Positions 18,714-63,640 of a DNA stretch of 64,000 bases are shown piece after piece. The stretch comes from Komagataeibacter xylinus (GTDB taxonomy: Bacteria > Pseudomonadota > Alphaproteobacteria > Acetobacterales > Acetobacteraceae): positions 372,001 to 436,000 of the forward strand of contig NZ_JARWSK010000002.1 of the NCBI RefSeq assembly GCF_031081985.1, written 5' to 3'. Within the stretch, counting starts at the first letter, position 1, and the number at the start of each line of letters is the position of its first letter. Made by a program: the position numbers and the translations under genes. Below the pieces are notes generated by a model. That model worked only from the letters and a program-made list of their open reading frames with translations, had not been told where the DNA came from and searched no databases.

Positions 18714-18799
18714 TGATAAAAGTTTTCGGGCTCTGCTTTTTGTCAAAAAAAGCGGCGTTCTTCGAAGCTTTTTGAAAACAGCTTCACCAAAAACTTCTT
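18714..18799 (+). repeat. Dispersed three-stem palindromic element, copy 1
   Basis: First copy of an intergenic element found twelve times (whole or broken) in the window. The general plan is an outer inverted repeat (AAGTTTTTGGGTG with CACCAAAAACTT) that encloses hairpin 1 (GCCGCCTTTTT-TC-AAAAAGGCGGC) and hairpin 2 (GAAGCTTTTT-GA-AAAAAGCTTC). In this copy hairpin 1 is eroded (CTGCTTTTT with AAAAAGCGGC). It ends 12 bases before the stop of the minus-strand membrane protein at 18812. Confidence 0.85.
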
Positions 18800-18811
18800 T
18801 TGGCAGAAGGC

Positions 18812-19447
18812 TTACAGATCCTGCTCGACCTCATGGGCCACGTGATGCCGCCCGTCAGGCGCAATGCCACCGGGCAGGGGCAGCGCAGTCTCGACGGACT
18901 GCATCCGTGCCCACAGCATCGGCATGGCCACCACATAGTCACAACCCAGCATGACCACATTGCACACCATGGCGCAGGACACGGTCATGAGCAGCCTGTG
19001 CCTTGCGGATATGAGATAGGCGGTGGTCACACACAGGATTTCCAGCCATTCGATGCCAAACAGGAGGGCGCTGCCATACCCCCACTGCCAGTAGGCCCAC
19101 GCCCCCTGCAGGCTGAGGGTCACGAGCAGGAACACCCCGGTCCTGTGCAGCGGCCGAAGCCGGGAGAGATGCGCGATCAGCCAGTAAGGCAGGCTCATGC
19201 ACACGGTATCGTCCAGAATATTGTGTCCCAGTGCATAGATGATCTGCCTGCGCAGCACGGATGCCATAAACATTACAACCGCCAGCGGGCCTGACAGGTT
19301 TTGCAGGATCTGCTGTCCCTGCGGGCTGCGCAGGTTGTCGAATATGCTGCTGTCGGGTTCAGACAGCCACTCCACCACCCCGAGCAGAACGCCCATGATG
19401 CCAATGAGCAGGCAGGAATATCTGAGCGGCAGGGACATGCGGTTCAT
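18812..19447 (-). CDS. Hypothetical multi-pass membrane protein
   Basis: A 211-residue protein that I do not recognise. Hydrophobic segments near residues 8-25 (YSCLLIGIMGVLLGVVEWL), 50-65, 85-100, 110-130 (GVFLLVTLSLQGAWAYWQW), 135-150 and 160-185 suggest five or six membrane helices, with a hydrophilic His/Glu-rich C-terminus. The ATG at 19447 is chosen because it starts just before TM1; an in-frame start at 19522 would add about 25 basic residues. It stands alone on the minus strand, downstream of the candidate small RNA and its terminator. Confidence 0.55.
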   Translation of the reverse strand: MNRMSLPLRYSCLLIGIMGVLLGVVEWLSEPDSSIFDNLRSPQGQQILQNLSGPLAVVMFMASVLRRQIIYALGHNILDDTVCMSLPYWLIAHLSRLRPLHRTGVFLLVTLSLQGAWAYWQWGYGSALLFGIEWLEILCVTTAYLISARHRLLMTVSCAMVCNVVMLGCDYVVAMPMLWARMQSVETALPLPGGIAPDGRHHVAHEVEQDL

Positions 19448-19579
19448 GAAGGGCGATACTCTGGCGGGTCGGATTGCGCGGCAGGCTGTTACCTTTGCCA
19501 GAAATAAACTGATCCGGTCCAATTTTTAACCCGACCTGCCCCCGTTGCTGGGCCTGGTGGGATTGCACGGGCAGGGCAC

Positions 19580-19703
19580 AAAAAAAGACAGGGCCTCCCA
19601 TAGGGCGACCCTGTCAGTAGAACGTTGATACCGGAGGGTAACACGTCCAGCCCGGCATCATGACCGGATTTTATTGGTTTTTATGGAAGCCAGCGGCTTC
19701 GTG
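19580..19703 (-). ncRNA. Candidate small RNA (or leader) with own promoter and terminator
   Basis: This lies in the gene-free stretch 19448-19978. On the minus strand, TTGACG (19738-19733), a 17-base spacer and CATAAG (19715-19710) form a plausible promoter. About 120 bases downstream, a GACAGGG/CCCTGTC stem is followed by seven T (19586-19580). In between is a GAAGCC-gct-GGCTTC hairpin and no open frame of note. This could be a small RNA, or an attenuated leader of the membrane protein whose start is 133 bases further on. The parts are seen; transcription is inferred. Confidence 0.45.
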
Positions 19704-19771
19704 TAAGCCCTTATGCCATCCGCCTATTTAAACGTCAACAATAAATATAAATAAAAATACGATTTTACTTT

Positions 19772-19817
19772 TTTTGCACTGCACAATCAACATGGTTATT
19801 TTGCACTGCACAATCAA
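19772..19817. repeat. Direct repeat of a 19-bp TGCACTGCA-containing motif
   Basis: TTTTGCACTGCACAATCAA occurs twice (19772-19790 and 19799-19817), repeated every 27 bp in AT-rich DNA. Each copy holds the symmetric core TGCACTGCA, so it looks like a tandem operator. It lies 34-79 bp upstream of the candidate small-RNA promoter on the minus strand and 160-200 bp before the MATE gene on the plus strand. The regulator is unknown. Confidence 0.6.
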
Positions 19818-19978
19818 ATTTCATTATATACATAAATAGTAAGACAATTTTCTACCAGGCAGCTTAAACGGGCTGGGCAGGGGGTCTTGTGCCCGGTTTC
19901 AATGCCCCGCATCATGGGGCCTGACCATGGCCGCACCGTCCAGCGCCAGGCCCCCATTGCAGCTGACAGGACACCAAA

Positions 19979-21415: not shown

Positions 21416-21441
21416 TCAGCAGCCCGGAGCCGCCTTGCATG

Positions 21442-22146
21442 TCAGGCGTAATGGAACCAGTCGATCACGGCGGAAAATGGCGGGGCCGCCGCATCGTGCG
21501 CCGATACGATGGCCTGCCCATCGGCTACAGGCCATTCAATGCCCAGTGTTGCGTCGTTCCAGCGCAGGCTGCGCGCGCAGGTGGGGTCGGAGGGGGTGGT
21601 GCACTGGCAATACACCTCCGTATGGTCGGCCAACGCGCACCAACCATGCAGGAATCCCGGCGGTATCCAGAACTGGCTGCCGTTTTCGGCATTCAGGGTC
21701 ACGCCCACCCATTGCCCGAACGTAGGCGAGCCGGTGCGCACATCCACCGCCACACCCCATATCGCCCCGCGCGTGCAGCGCACCAGCCTGCCCTGAGCCT
21801 GGGGCGCCACCTGGGCATGAAGTCCCTGCACCATGAACCTGTGCCGCAACAGGCTATGATGATCCTGCGCGAAAGGGCTGCCCCCTCCGATCCGGGCCAG
21901 CAGGGCGGCAGGGCAGGTTGCGCTGGAAAAGTCGCCCCCCTCCTGCCGATGGGGCGGGGTGAACAAAAACAGGCCTTCCAGCTTCAGGGCCTCGATCTGC
22001 AGAGCAAGCCCCGGCGTGCTGCCTGATGCGGAAAAACCCGGCCCGGCACGGGTCGGGGACTGCGTTCCCATTTTCAGCATGCCCGCATGGTCAGACAATT
22101 GGTTGAATGGTGCATCACGGCCCTGCTCGCTATCCGGTCTGATCAT
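21442..22146 (-). CDS. dTDP-4-dehydrorhamnose 3,5-epimerase-like protein
   Basis: Cupin-fold protein resembling RmlC. Family motifs are visible but divergent: MVQGLHAQ (usually RGLHYQ), RCTRGAIWGVAVDVRTGSPTFGQWVGVTLNAENGSQFWIPPGFLHGW and TEVYCQCTTPSDP. The catalytic His of the first motif is kept. RmlC converts dTDP-4-keto-6-deoxyglucose toward dTDP-L-rhamnose for surface polysaccharide, but rmlA, rmlB and rmlD are not nearby. The N-terminus is about 45 residues longer than usual from ATG 22146; an ATG at 22080 shortens it. The strand is convergent with the MATE gene. Confidence 0.75.
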   Translation of the reverse strand: MIRPDSEQGRDAPFNQLSDHAGMLKMGTQSPTRAGPGFSASGSTPGLALQIEALKLEGLFLFTPPHRQEGGDFSSATCPAALLARIGGGSPFAQDHHSLLRHRFMVQGLHAQVAPQAQGRLVRCTRGAIWGVAVDVRTGSPTFGQWVGVTLNAENGSQFWIPPGFLHGWCALADHTEVYCQCTTPSDPTCARSLRWNDATLGIEWPVADGQAIVSAHDAAAPPFSAVIDWFHYA

Positions 22147-22233
22147 TTCATCACTTTGAAATGCAGTTTTAACGCCGCATCGGTTACGAACCGATTAAGA
22201 GCGCGTTTTGACATAACTCTTTGATATAAAATA

Positions 22234-22296
22234 ATAAAAGTTTTATGAAGCTGCCTTTCTTTGAAAAAAGACGGCATTCCCTGAAACTTTTTCAGA
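22234..22296 (+). repeat. Dispersed three-stem palindromic element, copy 2 (degenerate)
   Basis: A decayed copy: AAAAGTTTTATGAAGCTGCC, then CTTTCTTTGAAAAAAGACGGC and CTGAAACTTTTTCAG. Hairpin 1 and part of hairpin 2 can still be traced, but the closing CACCAAAAACTT arm is lost. It lies downstream of tRNA-Ala and upstream of the rmlC-like gene (both minus). Confidence 0.55.
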
Positions 22297-22386
22297 ATTT
22301 CAGAACGCATAAAGCCCTCATGCGGAACATGAAGGCACTGACACGGTCATCAATTAATAACGGGTGGGGGTACCAGATAAGGAATC

Positions 22387-31552: not shown

Positions 31553-32921
31553 CCTCTCCCCCTGCCTGCCCGTGACTTGGCGGGATGTGGATGACGTGCT
31601 GGCCGCGTGGGGCGAGCGCCCGGGTTTTGCCTGCCTTGACAGTGGCGGCCCGGTCGGGTTGCGTGCGCGCTGGACCATCATCTGCCGCGACCCTGTTCAC
31701 TGGATCGAGCAGCGTGATGGCGCGTGCTGGCTGGATGGCACGCAGGTGGCGCACGACCTGCCCCGCCTGCTGCGGCAATGCGTGCCGGGCGGTGGCTGCC
31801 CGCCCGGGGTGCCTTTTGCCGGGGGGGCGATCGGCTTTATCGGTTATGGCGCGGGCCAGCGCATGGAAGGCATCGGCACGCGCCATGGGGCAGGCGATGA
31901 TGGCCCCGAGGCCGCTTTCGGCCTGTATGACCATGCCTTCGTGCTCGATCGTGAGACAGGCCGCGCCTGGCTGGCGGGAACGAACCTTGATGCCGCGCGC
32001 ATGGCAGTGCTGGCCGCGCAGTGGGCGGCGATTGGTCCGGCAGCCACACCCTCATCCCTGCCCCCGTTGCGCTTTAGGCCCGATCAGGATGGGGCGGCCT
32101 ATCGCGCCGCCGTAGCGCAGGCCGTGGCCCGGATCGCGGCGGGCGAAGTGTTTCAGGTCAACATCACCGGGCGCATGCGGGCTGCCCGCCCGGCCGGGCT
32201 TGCGGCGGTTGATGTCTATCGCACGCTGCGCGTGACCTCGCCTGCGCCATTCGGGGCATTTATGGTGGGGGATGACGGGTTTGCGCTGCTCGGCGCCTCG
32301 CCCGAGCGTTTTTTAAGCCTTGATGGGACGGGCCGGGTCAGCACCCGGCCCATAAAGGGCACGGCCCCGCGCGGCGCCACCGCGCAGGATGATGCCCGCC
32401 TGGCCCATGCCCTGCGCCGTGACCCCAAGGAGCAGGCCGAGAACCTGATGATCGTTGACCTCATGCGCAACGATATCGGGCGCGTGGCACGGATGGGCAG
32501 CGTTGCCGTGCCGGAACTGTTCGTGGTCGAGACATTCGCGCATGTGCATCATCTGGTATCCGAAATAACCGGGCGGCTGGAGCCGGGGCGCGATGCGTGT
32601 GACCTGCTGGCCGCCACATTGCCACCCGGCTCGGTAACCGGCGCGCCCAAGCACCGCGCCATGCAGGTGATCGATGCGCTGGAGGCCTCGCCCCGTGGCG
32701 CCTATTGCGGCACCGTGGTGCGGATCGGGTGCGATGGCGCAATGGATAGCGCCGTCATCATCCGCACGCTGGTGCTCACGCGTGACCACGTTACGGCGGC
32801 GGCAGGGGGCGGCATTACCGTGGAGTCCGATCCGGTGCGCGAATACCGCGAGATGCGGCTCAAGATTGCGGCCCTGCTGGCCCTGTTCGGGCCGCAGGCG
32901 GATGAAGGAAACACGCCATGA
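31545..32921 (+). CDS. pabB: Aminodeoxychorismate synthase component I PabB
   Basis: Chorismate-utilising enzyme that forms 4-amino-4-deoxychorismate for folate synthesis. The 458 residues carry the chorismate-binding domain: IAAGEVFQVNITGRM, SPERFLSLDGTGRVSTRPIKGTAPRG, DPKEQAENLMIVDLMRNDIGRVA, LPPGSVTGAPKHRAMQVIDALE and a final GGITVESDPVREYREM. The IKGT motif, rather than an anthranilate-type variant, and the adjacent pabC support PabB over TrpE. The ATG overlaps the ptsI stop, tying folate synthesis genes to the PTS operon. The glutamine amidotransferase subunit (pabA) is not in the window. Confidence 0.92.
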   Translation: MASLSPCLPVTWRDVDDVLAAWGERPGFACLDSGGPVGLRARWTIICRDPVHWIEQRDGACWLDGTQVAHDLPRLLRQCVPGGGCPPGVPFAGGAIGFIGYGAGQRMEGIGTRHGAGDDGPEAAFGLYDHAFVLDRETGRAWLAGTNLDAARMAVLAAQWAAIGPAATPSSLPPLRFRPDQDGAAYRAAVAQAVARIAAGEVFQVNITGRMRAARPAGLAAVDVYRTLRVTSPAPFGAFMVGDDGFALLGASPERFLSLDGTGRVSTRPIKGTAPRGATAQDDARLAHALRRDPKEQAENLMIVDLMRNDIGRVARMGSVAVPELFVVETFAHVHHLVSEITGRLEPGRDACDLLAATLPPGSVTGAPKHRAMQVIDALEASPRGAYCGTVVRIGCDGAMDSAVIIRTLVLTRDHVTAAAGGGITVESDPVREYREMRLKIAALLALFGPQADEGNTP

Positions 32922-33727
32922 CTGCCCCGGCCCTGCCAGTATGGCTCAATGGTCGCATCATCGATCAGGCCGAGGCCCGCATCGACCCGGCGGACCGGGG
33001 GCTGCTGCTCGGCGATGGCCTGTTCGAGACCATGCGCGTGACGGATGGCGTGGTCCGGCGTTTCACGCTTCATATGGAGCGGCTGGCGCACGGCGCGGGC
33101 GTGCTCATGCTGCCCCCACCCGACAGAAGCCTGATCGCGCAGGCGGCGGGTGATCTGCTGGCCGCATGCGGGCTGCAAGATGGTTCGCTACGGCTCACGC
33201 TCACCCGTGGTTCTGGGCCGCGCGGGCTGCTGCCTCCGCCCGTGGTGCGCCCCACCGTGCTGCTGACCGCAACCGCCAGTCTGCCGCCTGCAACGCCCGT
33301 GCGGCTGGTCACGGCCAGCCACCGGCGCGATGAGGAGAGCGTGCTTTCGCGCGTCAAGAGCCTGAACTACCTGCCGTCCATTCTCGCGCGGATGGAGGCG
33401 GCGGCCCGGGGGGCGGATGATGCGCTGCTGCTCAACCGGGCGGGGCATGTGGCCGAGACGAGCGCCAGCACGCTTGTCGCCATCATCGGGGGGAAAGCGC
33501 TGACGCCCCCGGTGCATGATGGCGCCTTGCCCGGCATCGCCCGTGGCGTGCTGCTGGCGGCAGGATTGCTGCGCGAAGGCCGCCTCAGCCCCGCCATGCT
33601 GCGCGGCGCCGGGGCGGTTTTTGCCCTGAACAGCCTGTGCGCGCGTGAGGTGGTGGCGATTGACGGCCACGAACTGCCGCGCCAGCCCGCCTTTCTGGCC
33701 CGGCTGGCGGCGTATCTTGATGGCTGA
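32918..33727 (+). CDS. pabC: Class IV aminotransferase, probable aminodeoxychorismate lyase PabC
   Basis: PLP-dependent fold-type IV enzyme, 269 residues. It has the N-terminal IDPADRGLLLGDGLFETMRV, the PLP lysine in SRVKSLNYLPSILARMEA, and DDALLLNRAGHVAETSASTLVAI. Aminodeoxychorismate lyase releases pyruvate to give p-aminobenzoate. A branched-chain or D-amino-acid aminotransferase is possible from sequence alone, but the 4-base overlap with pabB strongly favours PabC. It is the last gene of the coupled series, with a dispersed palindromic element directly behind its stop. Confidence 0.88.
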   Translation: MTAPALPVWLNGRIIDQAEARIDPADRGLLLGDGLFETMRVTDGVVRRFTLHMERLAHGAGVLMLPPPDRSLIAQAAGDLLAACGLQDGSLRLTLTRGSGPRGLLPPPVVRPTVLLTATASLPPATPVRLVTASHRRDEESVLSRVKSLNYLPSILARMEAAARGADDALLLNRAGHVAETSASTLVAIIGGKALTPPVHDGALPGIARGVLLAAGLLREGRLSPAMLRGAGAVFALNSLCAREVVAIDGHELPRQPAFLARLAAYLDG

Positions 33728-33728
33728 A

Positions 33729-33814
33729 TGATAAAAGTTTTCGGATGCCCGCTTTTTTTAAAAAGGCAGTATTTTTCATGAAGCTTTTTGAAAAAAGCTT
33801 CACCAGAAACTTTC
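33729..33814 (+). repeat. Dispersed three-stem palindromic element, copy 3
   Basis: Starts 2 bases after the pabC stop. The outer arms are AAAGTTTTCGG and CACCAGAAACTTT. Hairpin 1 is degenerate (GCCCGCTTTTT with AAAAAGGC), while hairpin 2 (GAAGCTTTTTGAAAAAAGCTTC) is intact. It may act as terminator for the PTS-pab transcript. Confidence 0.88.
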
Positions 33815-33952
33815 TGGTGTTTCACAGGCGGGCTTTTCAAATCGCGCCAGGGAAGCCAGCCATAACATTTCACTTATTGCCCATTCCGGCGCGGTTGGAC
33901 TAATCCAACCCGCATTGGCTCATTTCCAGCTTGCGTGAAAGGTCACTTGCAG

Positions 33953-43937: not shown

Positions 43938-44177
43938 TCAGGCCATCAGGGTGCGGGCCTGCCGCCATGCCTGCTCCAGCGCATCGACCATGGTGGGCGC
44001 GGGCGTAGTCCATGCCTGCGCGGCCTGTCCGGGCACGTCGAGGCGTGCGCGCCAGCACGCGGCATCAGGCGCATCGGGCAGGCGTTCGATATTGATGCCC
44101 CAGGGGGCGGGAATGCGCGCCAGCACGCGGGCCAGTCTTTTCTCGGGTGTCAGTGGCGTTGCGTAATTATGGGACAT
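43938..44177 (-). CDS. Small protein of unknown function with repeat-derived ribosome site
   Basis: A 79-residue protein: MSHNYATPLTPEKRLARVLARIPAPWGINIERLPDAPD and a helical Trp/Ala-rich end (TMVDALEQAWRQARTLMA). No membrane segment, signal or known domain is seen. AGGAGG lies 7 bases before the ATG, one of the best ribosome sites in the window. That site falls within a fragment of the dispersed palindromic element (44178-44213). Coding is likely but unproven. Confidence 0.6.
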   Translation of the reverse strand: MSHNYATPLTPEKRLARVLARIPAPWGINIERLPDAPDAACWRARLDVPGQAAQAWTTPAPTMVDALEQAWRQARTLMA

Positions 44178-44213
44178 GGGTGCCTCCTTTTTTCAAAAAG
44201 CGTTCCCTACAAA
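44178..44213 (+). repeat. Dispersed element fragment, copy 5 (first hairpin only)
   Basis: GGGTGCCTCCTTTTTTCAAA matches the start of hairpin 1 with one change (G to T in GCCGCC), after which similarity fades. Read on the minus strand the change turns AGGCGG into AGGAGG, the Shine-Dalgarno core of the small ORF ending at 43938. Confidence 0.7.
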
Positions 44214-44346: not shown

Positions 44347-44856
44347 GTGTCCCCTTTTCCCGGCCTTGTGCCTGATGAATCTGTTGATGGCGTTGCCCAC
44401 CTGATCCAGACGGCGCTGACGCCGGTGTTCATGCTGTCAGGCATCGGCACGTTGCTCAACATGTTCAACACGCGGCTTGCCCGCGTCAGCGACCATATCG
44501 AGACCGTGCGCGACAAGCTGGAAAATGCCGATGACAAGAAGGGCAGTGAAAGCAGCGCCGTGCTGCTGCGCCGCCTGACCCACCTGCATTACCGCACCCT
44601 GCTGCTTGATGCCGCCATCCTGTTTGGCGGGGTCGGCGGGGCTTCGGCCTGCGGGTCGGCCTTTGCGCTTTTTCTGGGCAGCGTGCGCGATTCCGCCATT
44701 GCGTGGTGGCTGGTGCTCATGTTTGGCAATGCGCTGGTGTGCACGGTCATTGCGCTGGCCATGTTTCTGGGTGACAGCATCGTTGCGTGGCATGGCCTGC
44801 GCGTGACCACCTTCCTGCCGCATAAGCAGGAAATGCTCGAAAGCCAGGTGGACTGA
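44347..44856 (+). CDS. DUF2721 family membrane protein
   Basis: A 169-residue membrane protein: the N-terminal helix AHLIQTALTPVFMLSGIGTLLNMFNTRLARVSDHIETVRDKL, a charged linker, two further helices (LLLDAAILFGGVGGASACGSAFALFLG, WWLVLMFGNALVCTVIALAMFLGDSI). This is the DUF2721 pattern; its function is unknown. The start is GTG 44347 with AAGGA 11 bases upstream. It is convergent with the ThiY-like gene, with a palindromic element filling the gap. Confidence 0.85.
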   Translation: MSPFPGLVPDESVDGVAHLIQTALTPVFMLSGIGTLLNMFNTRLARVSDHIETVRDKLENADDKKGSESSAVLLRRLTHLHYRTLLLDAAILFGGVGGASACGSAFALFLGSVRDSAIAWWLVLMFGNALVCTVIALAMFLGDSIVAWHGLRVTTFLPHKQEMLESQVD

Positions 44857-44947: not shown

Positions 44948-45940
44948 TCAGGGTGATGCGGGCGTGCTGGAGGGATCCAGCGCATACTGATCCAGCACAA
45001 TGTCATGCGTCATCAGCCCATGCGCGTGCAGGAAGGCGGCAAAGGCCTCGTAGCGCGGCCGGTTGAGCAGGGCGGGCTGCTTGCACAGGCGTGGCAGCGT
45101 GGCCTGCCAGGCCGCGCGGTTGAGCGGCGTGTCGAGTTCCGGGTGGTCATGAATGGCCTGGGCCAGAATGGCGTCGGGGTGGTTGATCAGCGTGTTCGTG
45201 CCCTCGGCCAGTGCCTCCATGAAGGCCTTGATCCACGCATCATGCCCATGGGCGCGGGCGGCGAGAAAGATCAGTTCATCGGCGATCGGCACGCCGTGTT
45301 CCTCGGGGTAGAAGGCGGAAACCTTTATGCCCTTCTGCTGCAGGTCGAGCAGTTCATAGGTGCGCACCGCACCGATCACGCCATCGACCGCATGGCTGAT
45401 CAGGGCCTGTTCAAGCTGGAAATTGACATTCACCTGCCTGACATCGCCCAGGCCCAGCCCCACCGAATGCAGCATGGCGTCAAGCGAGGCATCATCCACG
45501 CCCGGCATGGAAATGCCGATGGTCCTGCCCTTGAGTTCCGCAAGGTCGTGAATGTTAGCCCCGGTAATCAGCACGTTCAGTGGCGTGTCGATCAGCGTGC
45601 CCACGCGCACCAGCGGAATGTTCTGGTCGGCCAGCATGCCAAGCTGCGCCTGATAGGACACGGCAAGGTCAGCCTGCCCTGCCGCCACCAGGCGCGGCGG
45701 CGAGCCGGGATCGGCGGGGGCGATGAGTTTGACATCCAGCCCGTGGCGGGCAAACGCCCCGCTGTACTGCGCGGCCAGAAGGCTGGCATGGTCGGCATTG
45801 AGGAACCAGTCCAGCACGACCGTGACCGACTGTCCCGCTGCCAGGGCAGGGCGGGCCGTGAGCGTGCAGGCCAAAATGGCCATCATGCCCAGCGCGTGCC
45901 TGAAGATGTGCATGATACGGAAAAGCCCCCTGGCCAGCAT
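44948..45940 (-). CDS. ThiY-like periplasmic substrate-binding protein (NMT1/THI5-like)
   Basis: ABC-transporter binding protein for a thiamine pyrimidine precursor such as N-formyl-HMP. It has a signal peptide (IFRHALGMMAILACTLTARP, cleavage near ALA). The mature part begins VTVVLDWFLNADHASLLAAQYSGAFARHGLDVKLI, the NMT1 signature, followed by AGQADLAVSYQAQ and LKGRTIGISMPGVDDASL. A TPP riboswitch 59 bases upstream strongly supports a thiamine role. The permease and ATPase genes (thiX, thiZ) are not adjacent. The start is uncertain: ATG 45940 or ATG 45913; both leave the signal peptide intact. Confidence 0.9.
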   Translation of the reverse strand: MLARGLFRIMHIFRHALGMMAILACTLTARPALAAGQSVTVVLDWFLNADHASLLAAQYSGAFARHGLDVKLIAPADPGSPPRLVAAGQADLAVSYQAQLGMLADQNIPLVRVGTLIDTPLNVLITGANIHDLAELKGRTIGISMPGVDDASLDAMLHSVGLGLGDVRQVNVNFQLEQALISHAVDGVIGAVRTYELLDLQQKGIKVSAFYPEEHGVPIADELIFLAARAHGHDAWIKAFMEALAEGTNTLINHPDAILAQAIHDHPELDTPLNRAAWQATLPRLCKQPALLNRPRYEAFAAFLHAHGLMTHDIVLDQYALDPSSTPASP

Positions 45941-45998
45941 GGACGTGGAACACGCGGCACGCAGGGAGCGGTCTCATGGCCCCGTGTCGTGGGGCCGT

Positions 45999-46076
45999 GC
46001 TGCCTCCCTTCGCTGGCATGACCCAGATCAGGTTCAACGGGTGTGATCTCAGCCCATCAATAAGGGGCACCCCGGT
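45999..46076 (-). promoter_or_regulatory. TPP riboswitch (THI element)
   Basis: On the minus strand the aptamer is complete: GGGGTGCCCCTT, then GATGGGCTGAGAT, CACCCGTTGAACCTGATCT and GGGTCATGCCAGCGAAGGGA, all invariant TPP-box parts. It controls the ThiY-like gene downstream. A GGCCCC/GGGGCC hairpin (45978-45996) follows the aptamer without a U run, so control may be at translation or through that hairpin. The aptamer is seen; the expression platform is inferred. Confidence 0.97.
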
Positions 46077-46138
46077 CAGGCGGCACAGTGTGGGCACGCG
46101 CGGCTTGCGTCAAGTCACGGATGCCCGAGCGTGTGGTC

Positions 46139-48305: not shown

Positions 48306-51300
48306 TTATCGCCGCATCCGCGCGCGCAGTCGCTGGCCAAGTCGCCGTGTGCCGACACGGATGCGCTCCATGTACAGATAGATGACCGGCGTGGTGTAGA
48401 GTGTCAGCAACTGGCTCATCATCAGGCCACCCACCACCGTAATACCCAGCGGGCGGCGCATTTCCATGCCGTAGCCGCTATTGGTGATCAGCGGCACGGC
48501 GCCAAGGGCTGCGGCAAGCGAGGTCATGAGAATGGGGCGGAAGCGCTGGATGCACGCATCGCGTATGGCGGGGGCGGGGTCCAGGCCCCGGTCACGCTCG
48601 GCATGCAGCGCGAAATCCACGATCAGGATGGCGTTCTTCTTCACGATGCCGACGAGCAGGATCATCCCGATCATGGTGATGAGCGAGAACTCCTGCCCCA
48701 GCGCCCACAGGGCAAGCACTGCGCCCACCCCGGCCGAGGGCAGGGTGGACATGATGGTCAGCGGGTGGATGTAGCTTTCATACAATATGCCCAGGGTTAC
48801 GTAGATCGTGACAAGGGCGGCGATGAAGATCAGCACCTCGTTGATGATGGCGGATTTGAACTGCGCCGCCTGCCCGCTGAAACCCCCGTGGATGGAGGGC
48901 GGCACATGCAGGCGGATCATGGTGTCCGCAATGGCGGCGGAGGCATCGCTCAGCGCCATGCCGGGTGCGAGGTCGAAGGAAATGGCCGCCGAGACGAACC
49001 CGTCCTGGTGCGAGACGGTGATGGGCGTGACACGCGGCTCGAGGCGCGCCACATCGGAGAGCGGGATCATGGTCTCGGTGCTTGACGAGACAGCCGACCC
49101 GTTCGAGGCCCCGGCCCCGCCTGCCAGCCGGTTGGCGATCTGGTTGCGAAAGGATTGCTGGCTGAGCTGCGTGCTGCGGCTGGCCTGCGTAGTGGTCGTC
49201 GCGCGCGCGCGCACCGTGTTCGACACCGTGCCCCCGCCCGCACTCCCGCCGGAGGTGGAAATGCGCATGGAACTGAGGATCTCGGGGCTGGTGCGGTACG
49301 CATCCGCCACCTCCATTACCACATGATAGGTGGTGAGCGGGGTGGAGATGTTCGATGCCGTGCGCTGGCCAAAGGCGTCATACAGCGTGTTGCTGACCAG
49401 TTGCGGCGTAATGAGGTAACGCGCGGCAAGGTCGCGGATGATGTCGGCATGGATGGCGGCACCATTGTTCATGACATCGGTCGTGACATCGCGCATCACC
49501 GGGTTCGTGCGCAGCGCAGCCGTCAGGATCGGAGCCCATTTGTACAGGTCATCGGCATTGTCGCTGGTGAGCTGGTAGCGGTAGGCGCCCTCCTTCTGCC
49601 GCCCGCCGCCACCGCTGATGTCACCCGCCGAGAACAGCGACATGTCCAGCCCCGGTATGGCGGCGAGGCGGTCATGCACGCGGGCGATCATGTCATCTAT
49701 GGTGTCGCGGCGCTTCGCGCGGTCGTGCAACTGCGCGAAGGCCTGCCCCTCGATGTTGGTATCACCCGAAAAGGCCACGACTTCCTCCGTGTCCGGGTCG
49801 GTCGCGAGCGCGTGGCTTATGGCGCGGATCTTCTCCTTCATGGCGGGGAAGGAGGTGGTCTGGTCCGCGCGGAAGAAGCTCATGACCATGGCCACGTCCT
49901 CCTTGGGCAATATGCCCTTGGGCATGAGCACGATCACGCCGATCATCACCGCAAGGCTGGCGGGCAGGGTCAGGGCGGTGAGCACATGGTGGCGCAGTGC
50001 TACATCAAGTGTGCGTTCGTAGGCGCGCAGCAGATGCCCGTAGCCCGCCTCCAGCATATCGCCCGCCTGGCGCGGCCACCGGCGCCACCACGGCGCGGCG
50101 GGGGGCAGGGGAGCCATCTCGCCCACTTCAAGGAACAGGCTGCACATCATGGGGGTGAGGCTCAGCGCCAGCAGCAGCGATACCGTGACCGTGATGGCCA
50201 GCGTCATGGAAAACTCGAAGAACACCTTGCCCGGCGTGCCCGCCAGCAAAAGCAGCGGCAGGAACACCGCAACGAGCGAGACGGTGATGGACAGCACCGT
50301 GAACCCGATCTCGCGCGAGCCCTTCAGCGCCGCCTCGCGCCGGTTCAGCCCGGCCTCCATGTGGCGGGCAATGTTTTCGAGCACCACGATGGCGTCATCC
50401 ACCACGAAACCCGTGGCGATGGTCAGCGCCATGAGCGAGAGGATATCGAGCGAGAAGCCGAACACCGACATCAGCGCCAGCGTGCCCGCCAGCGAGATGG
50501 GCACGGTAATGGCCGGGATCAGCGTCGAGCGCAGCGTGCGCAAAAAGACCAGCACAACGCCCACCACCAGCACGACCGAGGCCAGCAGCGTCCATTTGGT
50601 ATCGGCCAGGGAGGCGCGGATCGTGATCGAGCGGTCCATGACCGGGCTCAGCGTCACCCCGCGCGGCAGGGCGGCGCGCAGGGCGGGGATTCGGGCCTTG
50701 ATGTCATCGGTCACGCGGATGACATTGGCCCCTGCGCGCGGGCGGATGATGGCCATGACCGCCTGGTGCCCGTTGAGGTAGCCGATCTGGCGTTCGTTCT
50801 CCACGCCGTTGCGCACGGTGGCGACATCGCTCAGCCGCACGGGGCGGGTGTCGCGGTAGCCGATCACGAGGTCGCGGTACTCGGCGGCGGTGCGGGCCTG
50901 GTCATTGGTGGCCAGCATGGTGCGCGTGGTGTCGTTTTCGATGATGCCCTTGGGCGTGTTGGCATTGGCCGAGGCCAGCGCCGAGCGGATATCCTCGAAC
51001 CCCAGCCCGTATTTGAACAGGGGCCACGGGTTGATGTCCACCCGCACGGCGGGCGCGGAACTGCCCGCGATCTCGACCCACCCCACGCCCTGCACCTGCG
51101 CAAGCAGGGGCTGCAGGCGCGTCTTGGCAATGTCGTACAGCGCCGATACCGGCTGTGTGTCCGAGGTGAGGGCCAGGATCAGGATCGGGTTGTCGGAGGG
51201 GTTGGCCTTCCAGTACTGCGGCTGGGACTGCAGGGTTGCGGGCATGTCGGCGCGGGCGGCGCGCAGGGCTGCCTCCACATCATTGGCGGCGGCGTCGATA

Positions 51301-51599
51301 TTGGTCGATTCATCGAATATGAGCAGGATGAAGGCGCTGTCCTGGCTTGAATCCGATTCAATCGAACTCACCCCCGCCACCTGCCCCAGCCTGCGCTCGA
51401 GCGGCGTGGTGACGGATGTGGCCATCTGCTGTGGCGAGGCGCCGGGCTGGGTTGCCATGACATAGATGACCGGCACCGCGATGTTGGGCAGGTCGCCCAC
51501 CGGCAGCAGCCGGTAGGCGAACACGCCCGAAAGCAGGATGGCCAGCGCCATGAGCGTGGTCGCCACCGGGCGCAGGATGAAGACGCGGCACAGGTTCAC
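48306..51599 (-). CDS. RND multidrug efflux permease (AcrB/MdtC-like)
   Basis: Proton-driven inner-membrane exporter, 1097 residues, with twelve helices and two large periplasmic loops. Helix 4 has the proton-relay pair in GFVVDDAIVVLENIARHMEAG, and helix 10 the Lys in GIVKKNAILIVDFALHAE. It starts VNLCRVFILRPVATTLMALAILLSG, typical of MdtB/MdtC. A Ser/Thr/Gly-rich insert of about 60 residues (near 780-840, containing STSGGSAGGGTVSNT) interrupts the second periplasmic loop. No membrane fusion protein or TolC-type gene is adjacent. GTG start with GGAAG upstream; an SDR gene precedes it by 49 bases. Confidence 0.93.
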   Translation of the reverse strand: MNLCRVFILRPVATTLMALAILLSGVFAYRLLPVGDLPNIAVPVIYVMATQPGASPQQMATSVTTPLERRLGQVAGVSSIESDSSQDSAFILLIFDESTNIDAAANDVEAALRAARADMPATLQSQPQYWKANPSDNPILILALTSDTQPVSALYDIAKTRLQPLLAQVQGVGWVEIAGSSAPAVRVDINPWPLFKYGLGFEDIRSALASANANTPKGIIENDTTRTMLATNDQARTAAEYRDLVIGYRDTRPVRLSDVATVRNGVENERQIGYLNGHQAVMAIIRPRAGANVIRVTDDIKARIPALRAALPRGVTLSPVMDRSITIRASLADTKWTLLASVVLVVGVVLVFLRTLRSTLIPAITVPISLAGTLALMSVFGFSLDILSLMALTIATGFVVDDAIVVLENIARHMEAGLNRREAALKGSREIGFTVLSITVSLVAVFLPLLLLAGTPGKVFFEFSMTLAITVTVSLLLALSLTPMMCSLFLEVGEMAPLPPAAPWWRRWPRQAGDMLEAGYGHLLRAYERTLDVALRHHVLTALTLPASLAVMIGVIVLMPKGILPKEDVAMVMSFFRADQTTSFPAMKEKIRAISHALATDPDTEEVVAFSGDTNIEGQAFAQLHDRAKRRDTIDDMIARVHDRLAAIPGLDMSLFSAGDISGGGGRQKEGAYRYQLTSDNADDLYKWAPILTAALRTNPVMRDVTTDVMNNGAAIHADIIRDLAARYLITPQLVSNTLYDAFGQRTASNISTPLTTYHVVMEVADAYRTSPEILSSMRISTSGGSAGGGTVSNTVRARATTTTQASRSTQLSQQSFRNQIANRLAGGAGASNGSAVSSSTETMIPLSDVARLEPRVTPITVSHQDGFVSAAISFDLAPGMALSDASAAIADTMIRLHVPPSIHGGFSGQAAQFKSAIINEVLIFIAALVTIYVTLGILYESYIHPLTIMSTLPSAGVGAVLALWALGQEFSLITMIGMILLVGIVKKNAILIVDFALHAERDRGLDPAPAIRDACIQRFRPILMTSLAAALGAVPLITNSGYGMEMRRPLGITVVGGLMMSQLLTLYTTPVIYLYMERIRVGTRRLGQRLRARMRR

Positions 51600-54820: not shown

Positions 54821-55609
54821 ATGGTGAACGGCATTCTCGATTTTGTTGCCGGGCTGGGCAGGGCCGTTCTGGACATGGTGCGCATGGCCGGCAAGGTGGC
54901 GCTGTTCGGGGCCGTGGCGCTGTCGCATGTTGTCCGCCCGCCGTTTTACTGGCGCACGCTGTGGGGGTCGCTGGTCGAGATCGGGTATTTCTCGCTGCCC
55001 GTGGTGGCGTTGACCGCCCTGTTCTCGGGGGGCGTGATCGCGCTGCAATCCTATACCGGCTTTGCCCAGTACCATGCCCAGAACGCCATTGCGGGCATCG
55101 TTATCCTTGCGGTTACGCGCGAACTCGGGCCGGTGCTGGCGGGGTTGATGGTGGCGGGCCGCGTGGGGGCGGCCATGTCGGCCGAGATCGGCACCATGCG
55201 CGTGACCGACCAGATCGACGCGCTGACCACGCTCTCCACCAACCCCATGAAATACCTCGTCACGCCAAGGCTGGTGGCGGGCACGCTGGCGCTGCCCTTC
55301 CTGGTGCTGATTGCCGACATACTGGGCGTGCTGGGCGGGTTTACCGTATGCGTGATGAAGCTGGACTTCTCGGCTTCGGCCTATATCGCGGCCACCATCG
55401 CCTCGCTCAAGGTGATGGATGTGACGGTGGGGCTGGTCAAGGCGGCGATCTTCGGCTTCCTGATCACGCTCATGGGCTGCTACCACGGCTATCATAGCCG
55501 TGGCGGGGCCGAGGGCGTGGGGGCAGCGACCACGGCGGCCGTGGTGGCGGCATCAATCCTGCTGCTGACCTTCGATTACCTGCTGACGGATGTGTTCTTC
55601 TCGCAATGA
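54821..55609 (+). CDS. mlaE: MlaE-like lipid transport permease
   Basis: Permease of the Mla-type ABC system that moves phospholipids between the outer and inner membranes. The 262 residues have the family core PPFYWRTLWGSLVEIGYFSLPVVALTALFSGGVIALQ, then ELGPVLAGLMVAGRVGAAMSAEIGTMRVTDQIDAL and GCYHGYHSRGGAEGVGAATTAAVV. The ATG at 54821 has GGGAGG two bases upstream. It overlaps the ATPase gene by 4 bases. The MCE-domain gene (mlaD) that normally follows is missing here. Confidence 0.93.
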   Translation: MVNGILDFVAGLGRAVLDMVRMAGKVALFGAVALSHVVRPPFYWRTLWGSLVEIGYFSLPVVALTALFSGGVIALQSYTGFAQYHAQNAIAGIVILAVTRELGPVLAGLMVAGRVGAAMSAEIGTMRVTDQIDALTTLSTNPMKYLVTPRLVAGTLALPFLVLIADILGVLGGFTVCVMKLDFSASAYIAATIASLKVMDVTVGLVKAAIFGFLITLMGCYHGYHSRGGAEGVGAATTAAVVAASILLLTFDYLLTDVFFSQ

Positions 55610-56400
55610 CCGAACCGACTCCCAAGATCCGCATTCGCGGCCTGAAAAAGGCGTTTGGCCCCAAGGTGGTGCTCGATGGGGTGGACCTTGATGTCATGGG
55701 TGGCACGTCGTTCGTGGTCATTGGCGGCTCGGGCACCGGCAAGTCGGTGCTGCTGCGCTGCATCCTCGGCCTGATCACGCCCGATGCCGGTTCCATCGAG
55801 ATTGATGGCGTGGACGTGACCACGCTCACGCCGCGCCAGCGCGAACCCTACATGGCGCGGATCGGCATGCTGTTCCAGAACGGCGCGCTGTTTGACAGCC
55901 TGAGCGTGTGGGAAAACGTGACCTTCGGCCTCACCGCCGCCGCCCGCATGGGCCACGGCCCGCGCCTGACCCGCGCGCAGTCACGCGCACGGGCGGGCGA
56001 ACTGCTTGAGCAGGTGGGCATGGACCCGGCCGTGGGCGCGCTGTCGCCCGCCGAACTGTCAGGCGGCATGCAAAAGCGCGTGGGGCTGGCCCGCGCCATT
56101 GCCGCACGCCCCGAGATCCTGTTCTTTGATGAGCCGACCACCGGCCTCGACCCCATCATGGGCGCGGTGATTGACGGGCTGATTGCCGATTGCGTGCGCA
56201 AGCTCGGCTCCACCGCCATCGCCATTACGCACGACATGGCCTCCGCCCAGCGCATCGGGGACAGGGTGGGCATGCTCTATGAAGGCAGGCTGATCTGGCA
56301 GGGCCTGCCTTCCACCCTGTTTGATAGCGGCAACCCGGTGGTGGACCAGTTCACCCACGGCCGCCGCGAGGGGCCGATCAAGGTGGATGTAGGGAAATAA
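55606..56400 (+). CDS. mlaF: MlaF-like ABC ATPase
   Basis: ATP-binding subunit of the Mla system, 264 residues. Walker A is VIGGSGTGKSVLLRCILGL, the signature AELSGGMQKRVGLARAIAARP and Walker B EILFFDEPTTGLDPIMG. The variant SGGMQKR is typical for MlaF. It starts in the mlaE stop (ATGA). No mlaD, mlaB or mlaC follows: a palindromic element and radA come next. Confidence 0.95.
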   Translation: MTEPTPKIRIRGLKKAFGPKVVLDGVDLDVMGGTSFVVIGGSGTGKSVLLRCILGLITPDAGSIEIDGVDVTTLTPRQREPYMARIGMLFQNGALFDSLSVWENVTFGLTAAARMGHGPRLTRAQSRARAGELLEQVGMDPAVGALSPAELSGGMQKRVGLARAIAARPEILFFDEPTTGLDPIMGAVIDGLIADCVRKLGSTAIAITHDMASAQRIGDRVGMLYEGRLIWQGLPSTLFDSGNPVVDQFTHGRREGPIKVDVGK

Positions 56401-58650: not shown

Positions 58651-58887
58651 ATGACCGATACCCCACCCGATCGCCTGTCCGTCAACCCGACCAGCCCCTT
58701 TTATGACGAAGCCCTGCTTGAGCGTGGCATTGGCGTGCGCTTCAAGGGCATCGAGAAGAACAATGTTGAGGAATACTGCATCAGCGAAGGTTGGGTGCGC
58801 CTGGCCGTGGGCCGTGGTACTGACCGCTTCGGCAACCCCATGACCATGAAGGTGACGGGGCCGGTCGAGGTCTGGTTCAAATCCTGA
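58651..58887 (+). CDS. DUF3297 family small protein
   Basis: A 78-residue protein: LSVNPTSPFYDEALLERGIGVRFKGIEKNNVEEYCISEGWVRLAVGRGTDRFGNPMTMKVTGPVEVWFKS. This matches the short glutathione-peroxidase-neighbour-like DUF3297 family, which is widespread in proteobacteria with unknown function. No signal or membrane part is present. ATG 58651 starts the conserved region. It is followed 1 base later by a palindromic element. Confidence 0.85.
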   Translation: MTDTPPDRLSVNPTSPFYDEALLERGIGVRFKGIEKNNVEEYCISEGWVRLAVGRGTDRFGNPMTMKVTGPVEVWFKS

Positions 58888-59015: not shown

Positions 59016-59031
59016 TTGTTTCCCTACCGGG

Positions 59032-61626: not shown

Positions 61627-61824
61627 GACGAGTATTCAGCCCTTCAGAAACCTGACCCGATGCCGCATGAACGCGGCAGCCGGTGAAGAGGTACGGTTTG
61701 GCCCATGATGCGGTGCCGATGCAAGGTGGTTCTTTACCGCCGTAGGCTTATGCTGGCGGCGCAGATGCCACCGCAGCTTACGGTGCCCGAAAAGCCTGCC
61801 CACGGAAAAACTGGCAAATCATAA

Positions 61825-61882
61825 AGAAGTTTTTGGTAAATCTTTTTTCAAAAAGCTTTGAAAGACGCAGCTTTGGTGAAAG
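61825..61882 (-). repeat. Dispersed element, copy 11 (truncated)
   Basis: In the 333-base gap between hpnL and hpnN. Read on the minus strand, hairpin 2 and the closing arm remain (CTTTTTGAAAAAAGATTTACC, then AAAAACTTC), while hairpin 1 is reduced to a trace. No other feature was seen in this gap. Confidence 0.65.
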
Positions 61883-61959
61883 GAGATGGCGATCAGACCC
61901 GTCTGTTTTTCATCAATTATTTGCCGGGTAACACTCTTTTACAAAATCGCCCTGCCCGG

Positions 61960-62964
61960 TCAGGACTGATGGGGCAGGCGCATGTCCTTGGCTGGATCGG
62001 GACGGACCCAGCGTATTTCCATGACCTGCCACGCCACAAGCGAGGGCAGGCCCCAGGCGATCTCGCGCAGGCGCTTGATGAGCGAGAGCGCAATCCCCTC
62101 CTGCGGGGAAAGGCCCAGCAGCCCGCCAATCAGGATATACCCGCCCTCCGACACGCCAAGCGCGCCCGGCACGGCGAACCCGGCCGATTTTGCGGCCTGC
62201 CCCACGCTTTCGATCACGAAACTGTCAGCGAGCGAAAGCGGGTGGCCCATCGCCGCGAGCACCACAAAAACCTCGAACGTGCCAAGCGACCACCCCAGCA
62301 GTTGCAGCGCCCCCGCGCGCAGCGAGTTCTCGCGCGTGCGGTACAGGGTCAGGATCTGCGCATGCAGGCCACGGATGTCATCCACCCCGTCCCACCCCAG
62401 ATGGGCGGCAATGCGCACCAGCAGCTTTTCCACCAGCGCAATGGCGCCCAGGTACTGGCTGCCAAAGAATACGGCGCCCAGCAGCAGGGCCGCGGCAGCA
62501 CTTTCCATCAGTTCATCAGTCACGGGCGAGCGGTTGACGAGGCAGAACAGCACGCCAAGCCCGATGAGCGTAAAGGTGACCTGACTGAGCAGTTCGATGG
62601 TCAGGTCGCATATGGTCGAGGCTGCGGCCTGCTTTATGCCCGTATCATCACGCCGGGCGAGCAGGCGGGTGGTGATGACCTCGCCGCCCACCTGGGCTAC
62701 GGGCAGCAGGTTGTTGATGCCCTCGCGCGCGCAGCGCAGGGCAAAGAAATCGGCAAAGGCCAGCTTTGGCCGCCCGGTCTGGGCCAGAAGGCGCCATGCC
62801 TGCGCCGAGACGCAGACCTGGGTTGCATGGAAAATGATGATGGCAGGAATGCTCCACCCTCCGGCCGCGACCAGCCCGAGGATGTCATGCAGGCCGAAAC
62901 GCCCGAGCATCCAGATCGTAAGACCGACACCGAATGCCCCGGCGAGGAAGGTAAGCTGCCGCAT
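61960..62964 (-). CDS. hpnL: HpnL-like membrane protein (lysylphosphatidylglycerol synthase TM family)
   Basis: A 334-residue integral membrane protein of the flippase-like LPG_synthase_TM group, with about eight helices. The family features are ALRCAREGINNLLPVAQVGGEVITTRLLARRD and SVGQAAKSAGFAVPGALGVSEGGYILIGGLLGLSP. HpnL is a conserved member of hopanoid gene clusters with a presumed role in lipid handling. It lies upstream of hpnN on the same strand, which supports the call. Its stop is 333 bases from the hpnN start. Confidence 0.88.
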   Translation of the reverse strand: MRQLTFLAGAFGVGLTIWMLGRFGLHDILGLVAAGGWSIPAIIIFHATQVCVSAQAWRLLAQTGRPKLAFADFFALRCAREGINNLLPVAQVGGEVITTRLLARRDDTGIKQAAASTICDLTIELLSQVTFTLIGLGVLFCLVNRSPVTDELMESAAAALLLGAVFFGSQYLGAIALVEKLLVRIAAHLGWDGVDDIRGLHAQILTLYRTRENSLRAGALQLLGWSLGTFEVFVVLAAMGHPLSLADSFVIESVGQAAKSAGFAVPGALGVSEGGYILIGGLLGLSPQEGIALSLIKRLREIAWGLPSLVAWQVMEIRWVRPDPAKDMRLPHQS

Positions 62965-63036
62965 CCGCCATCCCTGTCACCCAAAACAGGACCGCAGAAA
63001 GGCTGTTTTCAGCCATTCATGTGGCCCGATCCTACT

Positions 63037-63522
63037 TTAACAGCCTCTGATTTTCTGAAGCAATGCGAGACTTTCAACACAGGCGGCAACGGCTTCGCGG
63101 CCCTTGTTGTGCACGTCATCACGCGAGCGCACGATGGCCTGCTCATCGGTGTAGGTGGTGAGCACGCCAAAGGCGATCGGCACATCCGTGTTCAGCGCTG
63201 CCTGTTGCAGGCCAACCGCCGCCCCAAGGCTGATGAACTCGAAATGCGCAGTATCCCCCTTCACCACGCAGCCGAGGCATACCACACCATCATAACGCCC
63301 GGTTTTGGCCAGGGTCTGCGCGATGAGCGGCAGTTCATATGCGCCGGGTGCATACATAACATCTTCATCACGCATGGAGATGGCGTGTTCCTTCAGCCAT
63401 GCCAGCGCGCCGTCGCGCAGGCCATGGGTCACCTCTTCATTGAAGCGGCTGACCACGATGGCAAGGCGCGGCGGATGGGCGAAGCTGAGTTCAACCGTGG
63501 TGGAGGGGATGTTGGTGCTCAT
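63037..63522 (-). CDS. ribH: 6,7-dimethyl-8-ribityllumazine synthase RibH
   Basis: Penultimate enzyme of riboflavin synthesis. The 161 residues show LAIVVSRFNEEVTHGLRDGAL, VMYAPGAYELPLIAQTLAKTGRYDGVVCLGCVVKGDTAHFEFI (catalytic His region) and VPIAFGVLTTYTDEQAIVRS. It lies downstream of the ribA/ribBA gene on the same strand, separated by a palindromic element. The GTP cyclohydrolase II part supplies the pathway precursor. Confidence 0.97.
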   Translation of the reverse strand: MSTNIPSTTVELSFAHPPRLAIVVSRFNEEVTHGLRDGALAWLKEHAISMRDEDVMYAPGAYELPLIAQTLAKTGRYDGVVCLGCVVKGDTAHFEFISLGAAVGLQQAALNTDVPIAFGVLTTYTDEQAIVRSRDDVHNKGREAVAACVESLALLQKIRGC

Positions 63523-63557
63523 ATCCGGCGTTGTCCGTTTTTATTGTGAGATAAAGT

Positions 63558-63640
63558 GATAAAAGTTTTCGGGTGCCGCCTTTTTTCAAAAAGGCGGCGT
63601 TTTTCGAAGCTTTTTTCAAAAAGCTTCACCAAGAACTTCT
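63558..63640 (+). repeat. Dispersed three-stem palindromic element, copy 12
   Basis: Between ribA (stop at 63642) and ribH. Hairpin 1 is perfect. Hairpin 2 has the two loop bases inverted (GAAGCTTTTT-TC-AAAAAGCTTC instead of GA), as if the hairpin had flipped. Its outer arms are AAGTTTTCGGGTG and CACCAAGAACTT. It is opposite in orientation to its upstream gene. Confidence 0.92.

What the first reader, a model, noticed from the sequence alone, without database searches (positions are those of the whole stretch)
18714..63640. A dispersed intergenic element with two hairpins inside a third stem, in twelve copies
Seen directly: nine near-complete copies (18714, 33729, 41529, 44860, 48207, 53263, 56408, 58889, 63558), three degraded ones (22234, 44178, 61825), each about 80 bp. 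The outer arms AAGTTTTTGGGTG/CACCAAAAACTT enclose two perfect hairpins, so the transcript can fold as a three-way junction. Seven copies begin within 30 bases after a stop codon, in the same orientation relative to the gene they follow, even when that gene is on the minus strand (48207). The other copies lie next to stops or tRNA ends. No protein of a transposon is near them. They may be a non-autonomous mobile element that has settled as terminators or mRNA 3' stabilisers. At one per about 7 kb, a whole genome would carry hundreds.
Basis: partly seen in the sequence, partly recalled or inferred. Interest (0 to 1): 0.8.

Follow-up and report, generated by a model that had tools for sequence, protein, structure and literature searches.

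The report
Paired-hairpin repeats behind bacterial genes
Acetic acid bacteria carry well over a hundred copies per genome of a short, foldable DNA repeat placed just behind the ends of genes, and it resembles a known class of repeats (REPs) but seems to lack that class's spreading enzyme, can lie flipped at the same place in related species, and has different versions in different genera.

Summary
The repeat is real. Nine full copies lie in the window; two of the three degraded ones are recovered by a covariance model, 44178 only as a 24-bp fragment. The host is a Komagataeibacter or near relative (inferred). None of 288 other alphaproteobacterial genomes matched under strict filters. The plan is constant: inverted arms (AAAAGTTTTTTGG) and two hairpins with T/A cores; the GC clamps differ between genera yet still pair. 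Copies sit just after stop codons: of 145, 87 between convergent genes, 53 tandem, 5 divergent. The genus has no Y1/RAYT transposase (0 of 19 genomes). Canonical terminators occur beside copies, so it is probably not the main terminator. Copies diverge at least as fast as the adjacent spacer, although paired bases change at about half the rate of unpaired ones. At shared sites the element is sometimes inverted. Best reading: a RAYT-less, REP-like composite repeat, spread mostly long ago and kept in mRNA 3' ends, most likely as an orientation-independent 3'-end barrier. A purely selfish repeat is nearly as likely. No transcript data were available.

The parts
18715..18799 (+). full copy; 12 nt from the stop of the oppositely oriented gene 18812-19447(-)
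   Evidence: R1 89.3 bits; context
33730..33815 (+). full copy, 2 nt after the stop of 32918-33727(+), aminotransferase class IV
   Evidence: R1 85.2 bits
41529..41612 (+). full copy, 2 nt after the stop of 39856-41526(+); a canonical hairpin terminator follows downstream
   Evidence: R1 102.4 bits
44860..44943 (+). full copy filling the spacer between convergent genes 44347-44856(+) and 44948-45940(-); this spacer is 2 nt in genome G012
   Evidence: R1 92.4 bits
48207..48291 (-). full copy on the minus strand, 14 nt after the stop of 48306-51599(-)
   Evidence: R1 105.3 bits
53262..53345 (+). full but divergent copy, between divergent genes (one of the few such)
   Evidence: R1 76.1 bits
56408..56492 (+). 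full copy, 7 nt after the stop of 55606-56400(+), between tandem genes
   Evidence: R1 101.5 bits
58889..58973 (+). full copy, 1 nt after the stop of the DUF3297 gene 58651-58887(+); a canonical terminator predicted on both strands lies directly downstream; opposite orientation at the same site in three close relatives
   Evidence: R1 106.6 bits
63558..63641 (+). full copy; its 3' end abuts the stop of the oppositely oriented gene 63642-64892(-)
   Evidence: R1 100.2 bits
22233..22292 (+). shortened/degraded copy, 60 nt
   Evidence: R1 32.1 bits, E 3e-5
61824..61907 (-). degraded copy; a better-scoring form is at the same place in G003
   Evidence: R1 28.7 bits, E 3e-4; alignment
44177..44200 (+). 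fragment of hairpin 1 only
   Evidence: 24-nt family D4, 96% identity; not found by R1 at E<=0.01

Best explanation
It is an Acetobacteraceae-specific, REP-like composite repeat of about 75-95 bp. Inverted-repeat arms enclose two hairpins with T/A cores, so the element reads nearly the same from either strand. Shown here: copies lie just 3' of stop codons, mostly between convergent genes; the plan is shared across genera whose hairpin clamps differ but still pair; no RAYT/Y1 transposase is found in the genus; copies decay in place, and at shared sites the orientation sometimes differs. Inferred: it spread by amplification of genus-specific versions by an unknown machinery, mostly before the close relatives split. 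Because it would be transcribed into the 3' UTR from whichever side and folds into much the same branched double hairpin in either orientation, it most likely works as a bidirectional barrier that protects or defines mRNA 3' ends against 3'-to-5' exonucleases behind Rho-dependent or hairpin termination, rather than being the terminator itself.
For: Copy number and spread: 150 distinct places in the own genome (cap), 19 of 19 genus genomes counting the own, 20 of 150 genomes and 12 of 102 genera of the family, own genome counted, 0 of 288 other genomes of the class (strict filters). A clamp-blind core pattern scanned over the GTDB collection gave 80 listed stretches, nearly all titled Acetobacteraceae or Rhodospirillales (exceptions in the full report). 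Constant plan with different, paired clamps between genera. Position: 87 convergent, 53 tandem, 5 divergent of 145; occupancy 51/109 convergent, 35/548 tandem, 2/110 divergent spacers; tandem copies within 30 nt of the stop 22/32 and 19/21 against 28-29% expected. Orientation nearly indifferent (93 same, 47 opposite), and opposite in 4 of 33 and 5 of 26 shared spacers; at the DUF3297 site both orientations occur within the genus. Paired bases diverge 0.101 against 0.184 for unpaired; double changes from consensus 37 observed (28 still paired) against 17.4 expected. Canonical terminators kept beside copies argue for a role other than primary terminator.
Against: No transcript or decay data. Copies are no better conserved than the adjacent spacer (identity 0.854 vs 0.880; spacers without the element 0.924). 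Compensation within one genome is weak: 93.9% of cells paired against 93.5% in shuffles (13 of 500 shuffles reach it), 6 pairs changed on both sides against 3.7 (39 of 500); 113 of 170 single stem changes between orthologous copies break a pair. Many one-sided sites hold shortened or decayed copies. At the DUF3297 site the element is missing in G012 and in 7 of the 11 other-genus genomes with the gene (read by eye).
Confidence: 0.42

Rival explanations
1. A purely selfish, non-autonomous mobile repeat (MITE-like) that does nothing for the host. Insertions are tolerated only where they hurt least, just behind stop codons and away from promoters, and each copy then decays neutrally. The structure is needed only by the copies that still multiply.
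For: Inverted terminal arms; genus-specific versions; copies diverge at least as fast as flanking spacer; shortened or decayed copies at many one-sided orthologous sites; absence at C10:416827 in G012 and at C10:246917 in G000 against G018; few copies between divergent genes.
Against: No target duplication stood out and no autonomous partner was seen in the sampled 1.5 Mb; no Y1 transposase. Clustering next to the stop in tandem spacers is stronger than uniform placement gives, though promoter purging could explain part of it. Paired bases change at about half the rate of unpaired ones. One gene's 3' end keeps the element or a remnant in 17 of 19 genomes although the sequence beyond it changes (by eye).
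Confidence: 0.35
2. A bidirectional intrinsic transcription terminator: A-tract, branched hairpin, U-rich tail.
For: A-rich left and T-rich right flanks; location between convergent genes; hairpin clusters near stops are reported to act in intrinsic termination (PMC8355165, abstract and outline seen).
Against: The stem next to the T-rich tail is A/U-rich. Canonical terminators (GC-rich hairpin plus T run) overlap elements in only 11 calls over 90 copies, and occur beside it about as often as without it, 16/50 vs 8/35. At the DUF3297 site the terminator lies downstream of the element and is kept where the element is missing.
Confidence: 0.12
3. A DNA-level site: gyrase or nucleoid-protein binding, or cruciform extrusion, that absorbs supercoiling between convergent genes, as proposed for E. 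coli BIMEs (recalled).
For: Convergent-gene preference; T/A-tract palindromes; orientation nearly indifferent; best-scoring copies concentrated around the presumed replication origin in G018.
Against: No binding data; copies lie next to stops rather than throughout convergent spacers.
Confidence: 0.08

Closest known systems
REP / BIME / REPIN elements (GTAG- and CGTC-tagged palindromes)
   Same: High copy, intergenic, palindromic, downstream of genes; between tandem and convergent ORFs rather than divergent ones (PMC3733652, passages seen).
   Different: About 84 bp, one composite unit of two unequal hairpins inside shared arms instead of 20-40-bp palindromes; no GTAG or CGTC tag in the consensus; no RAYT in the genus. 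That paper says CGTC repeats are missing in Acetobacteraceae (passage seen).
REP calls of the RepRanger survey, which includes the Acetobacteraceae species Lichenicola cladoniae
   Same: A palindrome counter gives 1,369 REPs in the text and 6,569 in its table for that species (PMC12306157, passages seen); family membership of the species.
   Different: Only counted in the passages I saw; this plan is not described in them, and I did not test whether those calls are this element.
Stable A/T-flanked stem-loops behind genes in low-GC firmicutes
   Same: Close to stop codons, A-rich 5' and T-rich 3' flank; stem-loops prefer convergent spacers in all bacteria surveyed (PMC1590033, passages seen). 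The position bias alone is therefore not special.
   Different: Here a single dispersed repeat family with a three-stem plan in a 64%-GC genome.
MITEs and other small palindromic repeats (ERIC, NEMIS/Correia, BOX; recalled)
   Same: Short, non-coding, inverted-repeat ends, many copies.
   Different: No target duplication stood out and no matching autonomous element was seen in the stretches searched; near-indifferent orientation; inversions at shared sites.
Canonical bidirectional intrinsic terminators
   Same: Hairpin behind stop codons between convergent genes, A-rich 5' and T-rich 3' flank.
   Different: Three-stem branched fold with A/U-rich base; coexists with a canonical terminator in 16 of 50 convergent spacers.

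Membership tests
REP/REPIN-RAYT system | High-copy, extragenic, palindromic, 3' of genes | tested here: met
   150 distinct places, the cap; 1 of 145 inside a gene, 5 of 145 in divergent spacers
REP/REPIN-RAYT system | 20-40-bp palindrome with GTAG or CGTC foot | tested here: not met
   about 84-bp unit; neither tag on either strand of the consensus; 2 of 36 anchored copies hold GTAG/CTAC anywhere
REP/REPIN-RAYT system | RAYT (Y1_Tnp, PF01797) in the genome | tested here: not met
   0 of 19 genus genomes, control genomes ring in 5 of 14; 3 of 13 element-bearing genomes of other genera match
MITE | terminal inverted repeats | tested here: met
   AAAAGTTTTTGG / CCAAAAACTTTT arms
MITE | target-site duplication | tested here: inconclusive
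   no offset and length stands out among 1560 tested, exact matches only; 36 of 72 copies could be anchored, and copies are old
MITE | related autonomous transposon | tested here: inconclusive
   no orphan arm pairs 300-4000 bp apart in the C10, C12, G018 and G003 stretches; of transposases only PF01797 was searched genome-wide
Intrinsic terminator | GC-rich hairpin directly followed by a T run | tested here: not met
   11 overlapping calls over 90 copies, strict criteria of my own
Intrinsic terminator | RNA 3' end at the site | not testable with these tools
   no RNA data held
Any Rfam 15 family | match at the family's gathering score | tested here: not met
   window matches only TPP and tRNA; best sub-threshold hit over the 58889 copy is 25.6 bits against 64 needed
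BIME-type DNA site | gyrase or IHF binding | not testable with these tools
   no binding data

The most novel reading that the evidence does not exclude
A family-wide, RAYT-independent class of self-symmetric repeats whose interior is exchanged and inverted in place. Template switching or conversion between copies through the shared arms rewrites the copies of a genus with the same hairpin clamps while their places behind genes stay fixed. Such a repeat would spread and stay uniform without a dedicated transposase and supply orientation-independent mRNA 3' ends.
Probability: 0.2. Interest if true: 0.72.

Novelty: new variant of a known kind. Interest (0 to 1): 0.52.

Why it matters
It adds a major repeat class to industrially important acetic acid and cellulose-producing bacteria, where terminators and 3' UTR parts are engineering needs. 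It also departs from the usual REP-RAYT link: high-copy palindromes behind genes with no Y1 transposase found in the genus, and opposite orientations at fixed sites, which makes the question of how such repeats spread and are kept uniform directly testable.

Tried and rejected
Primary terminator as the main reading: set aside. RAYT mobilisation: not supported for this genus. Strong per-copy selection on sequence: not supported. A MAFFT alignment across genera (A8) misplaced the A runs, so no pair counts were taken from it. The model-fitted cross-genus alignment (A7) was not used for counts either. Clamps were read by script instead, where 6 of 29 elements gave no two hairpins by its rule; the G054 clamps are read. 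For one search I used the 56 best-scoring of the 72 copies of at least 80 nt. A concerted-evolution test by ortholog rank was mixed: the true ortholog was best in 11 of 24 (G018) and 3 of 16 (G003) same-orientation pairs. Eight literature searches aimed at this element or its host listed no paper that by title or abstract start describes it (open-licence library only). Five papers were looked into by term search: PMC2267715, PMC4686929, PMC3733652, PMC12306157, PMC1590033; PMC8355165 by abstract and outline.
Full report
1. Observation. The copies exist where stated. The majority consensus of the nine is GATAAAAGTTTTTGGGTGCCGCCTTTTTTCAAAAAGGCGGCGTTCTTnGAAGCTTTTTGAAAAAAGCTTCACCAAAAACTTTTT. Most of the nine fold as two hairpins closed by the arms; seven have z-scores of -4.1 to -6.0, while 18714 and 33729 have -2.2 and -2.4, and 33729 lacks the outer stem. 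Rfam 15 has no such family.

2. How many and where. A covariance model from the nine window copies (R1) finds 90 non-overlapping places in 856 kb of the own genome: 67 on C10 (456 kb) and 23 on C12 (400 kb) (the best 150 of 169 matches entered this count, the weakest 19 were dropped, and opposite-strand matches of the same place were merged). Genome-wide the search returned 150, its cap; they are 150 distinct places, at least 439 bp apart. All 18 genus mates have 39 to 113 matches, 113 being the cap. In the family 20 of 150 genomes (12 of 102 genera), own genome counted, match at E<=1e-6; in the class 1 of 289, the own one (a few of the 288 others are of the same family; both searches use stricter filters that lose weak matches). 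Six plasmid records match, five Komagataeibacter and one Novacetimonas. The host genus is inferred from this and from contig lengths: contigs of genus mates G007, G005, G013 and G004 have exactly the lengths of Komagataeibacter contigs. These are Komagataeibacter, Novacetimonas, Gluconacetobacter, Acetobacter, Gluconobacter, Asaia and Acidocella, or metagenome bins titled Acetobacteraceae or Rhodospirillales, except two rows titled Acidobacteria (one bin), one Proteobacteria and one Clostridia. On reading the letters, the Clostridia row has no arm, two rows are cut at a contig end, and a few copies are degenerate. The pattern misses much: it is exact, and many fetched loci that hold R1 copies have no match.

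3. Anatomy across genera. In other genera the same plan recurs: AAAAGTTTTTTG(G), hairpin with TTTTT-ttca-AAAAA core, linker of 1-10 nt, hairpin with TTTT-tgaa-AAAA core, CAAAAAACTTTT. The clamps differ: GCCGCC and GAAGC in the window's genus, GCCGCC and GTGGCCCC (or variants) in g84, CTCCC and GTTC in G054 (g37), GCTTC and TTTC in G144 (also g37), GCTTC and GTTC in g50 and g96. Named Acetobacter and Gluconobacter copies carry clamps close to the window's, so clamp types follow genera only in part. The two cores are reverse complements of each other, so the element is nearly symmetric under strand exchange; orientation is defined by which clamp comes first.

4. Position. With my own gene calls, 145 full copies (>=70 nt, both neighbours known) divide into 87 convergent, 53 tandem and 5 divergent spacers; 1 lies inside a called gene and 3 overlap one by more than 20 nt. 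Occupancy on C10+C12 is 51 of 109 convergent, 35 of 548 tandem and 2 of 110 divergent spacers. Tandem copies lie within 30 nt of the stop in 22 of 32 (C10+C12) and 19 of 21 (G018+G003) cases against 28-29% for uniform placement; over all copies with a neighbouring stop it is 64 of 80 (59% expected) and 54 of 60 (64% expected). In 24 of 140 the stop codon itself overlaps the element's end. Orientation relative to the nearest stop's gene is 93 same, 47 opposite; for tandem copies 32 of 53 follow the genes.

5. Terminators. My strict scan for GC hairpin plus T run finds a canonical terminator in 16 of 50 convergent spacers (>=30 nt) with the element and 8 of 35 without. In the 16 with both, the terminator mostly lies between the element and the stop of the other gene. 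Behind the DUF3297 gene (window 58651-58887), stop-element-terminator is seen in G000, G018, G007, G003, G002 and G008, while G012 keeps the terminator and lacks the element (by eye). This is the best argument against the element being the terminator there.

6. History. Between C10 and G018 (about 94% gene identity) 33 syntenic spacers hold the element in both, 7 only in G000, 4 only in G018, 163 in neither. With G003 the numbers are 26, 3, 3 and 111; with G012 (83%) 3, 11, 0 and 60. Of the 17 one-sided cases against G018 and G003, by eye 13 or 14 show a shortened or decayed copy on the other side, often lacking one hairpin; in C10:246917, 348761 and 369529 no remnant is evident, and at 246917 the spacer is 7 nt in G000 but holds the element in G018. 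So some gain or loss has happened since that split. Against G012 several sites are simply absent, e.g. a 2-nt convergent spacer where the window's 44860 copy sits. In 4 of 33 and 5 of 26 shared spacers the orientation differs. Full-length inversions with conserved flanks are clear at C10:319732 (G018, G003), 187193 (G018) and 430858 (G003); others involve shortened, decayed or displaced copies. Behind DUF3297 it reads + in G000, G002 and G106 and - in G018, G007, G003 and G008. Of 11 other-genus genomes with the gene, G106 has the Komagataeibacter-type copy, G113, G054 and G172 have variants with other clamps, and 7 show none within 190 nt; 5 of 22 genomes searched lacked the gene. Behind the mannosyltransferase gene an element or remnant is found in 17 of 19 genomes although the sequence beyond it changes (by eye; three of the 17 are remnants).

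7. Selection. Elements are 85.4% identical between orthologous sites, adjacent spacer 88.0%, spacers without elements 92.4%, coding ends 94.4%. So individual copies are not conserved in sequence. Paired positions differ in 10.1%, unpaired in 18.4% (38 ortholog pairs). Against the consensus, 37 double changes are seen (28 still pair) where 17.4 are expected (72 copies), but 113 of 170 single changes between orthologs break a pair. On 56 copies aligned by sequence alone, pairing is barely above shuffles: 93.9% vs 93.5%, 13 of 500 shuffles as high; 6 pairs with two-sided change vs 3.7, 39 of 500; 12 double-change cells vs 6.2, 3 of 500. Hairpin-templated repair could also make such double changes (inference). 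The structure is therefore weakly constrained within the genus, while pairing of quite different clamps is kept between genera.

8. Mobility. There is no Y1_Tnp in 19 of 19 genus genomes; it is found in 3 of 13 element-bearing genomes of other genera. No target duplication stood out, and no long pair of arms around a gene was found in the sampled stretches. Spread is thus inferred from the versions in different genera and from empty sites; its machinery is unknown.

9. Chromosomal gradient. In G018 the 145 chromosomal matches (from the 150 best candidates) per twelfth of the chromosome are 22, 17, 7, 12, 7, 2, 5, 2, 11, 17, 15, 28: 106 in the half around position 1 and 39 in the opposite half. 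The mean direction, 2.90 Mb, coincides with the GC-skew switch near 2.92 Mb, the presumed origin. An uncapped sample of 20 stretches of 20 kb agrees for strong copies: 12 of at least 60 bits, 5 of them in the first 20 kb, none in the 12 stretches between 0.90 and 2.22 Mb, which hold only weaker ones. Core-gene density was not controlled for.

10. What is known. REPs between tandem and convergent ORFs, with supercoiling, termination or mRNA stabilisation as suggested roles, are in print (PMC3733652, passages and abstract start seen). A general preference of stem-loops for convergent spacers and for the stretch after stop codons is too (PMC1590033, passages seen). A RepRanger paper discusses REPs within 15 nt of stop codons as possible translation regulators and lists an Acetobacteraceae species (PMC12306157, passages seen). 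I found no description of this element in the searches. It works like a REP in place and form but fails the tag and RAYT tests, so I do not file it as a member.

Noticed in passing
window 45988-46084 (-): TPP riboswitch directly upstream of the NMT1/THI5-like gene 44948-45940(-).
   Followed up: no
G018 chromosome: Best-scoring copies cluster about the presumed replication origin: 106 of 145 in the origin half, 39 in the opposite half.
   Followed up: partly
L287, L288, L289 (IMG/VR contigs): Three viral-collection contigs carry element cores with Komagataeibacter-type clamps; whether they are true phage or host sequence was not checked.
   Followed up: no
element ends in C10, C12, G018, G003: In 24 of 140 copies the neighbouring gene's stop codon overlaps the element's own end (GATAAAAG), so the repeat may supply the stop.
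   Followed up: partly
L061 (G001), 3' of the mannosyltransferase gene: A partial copy with the GTTC-type hairpin typical of other genera, in a genome with 82 matches to the Komagataeibacter-type model.
   Followed up: no
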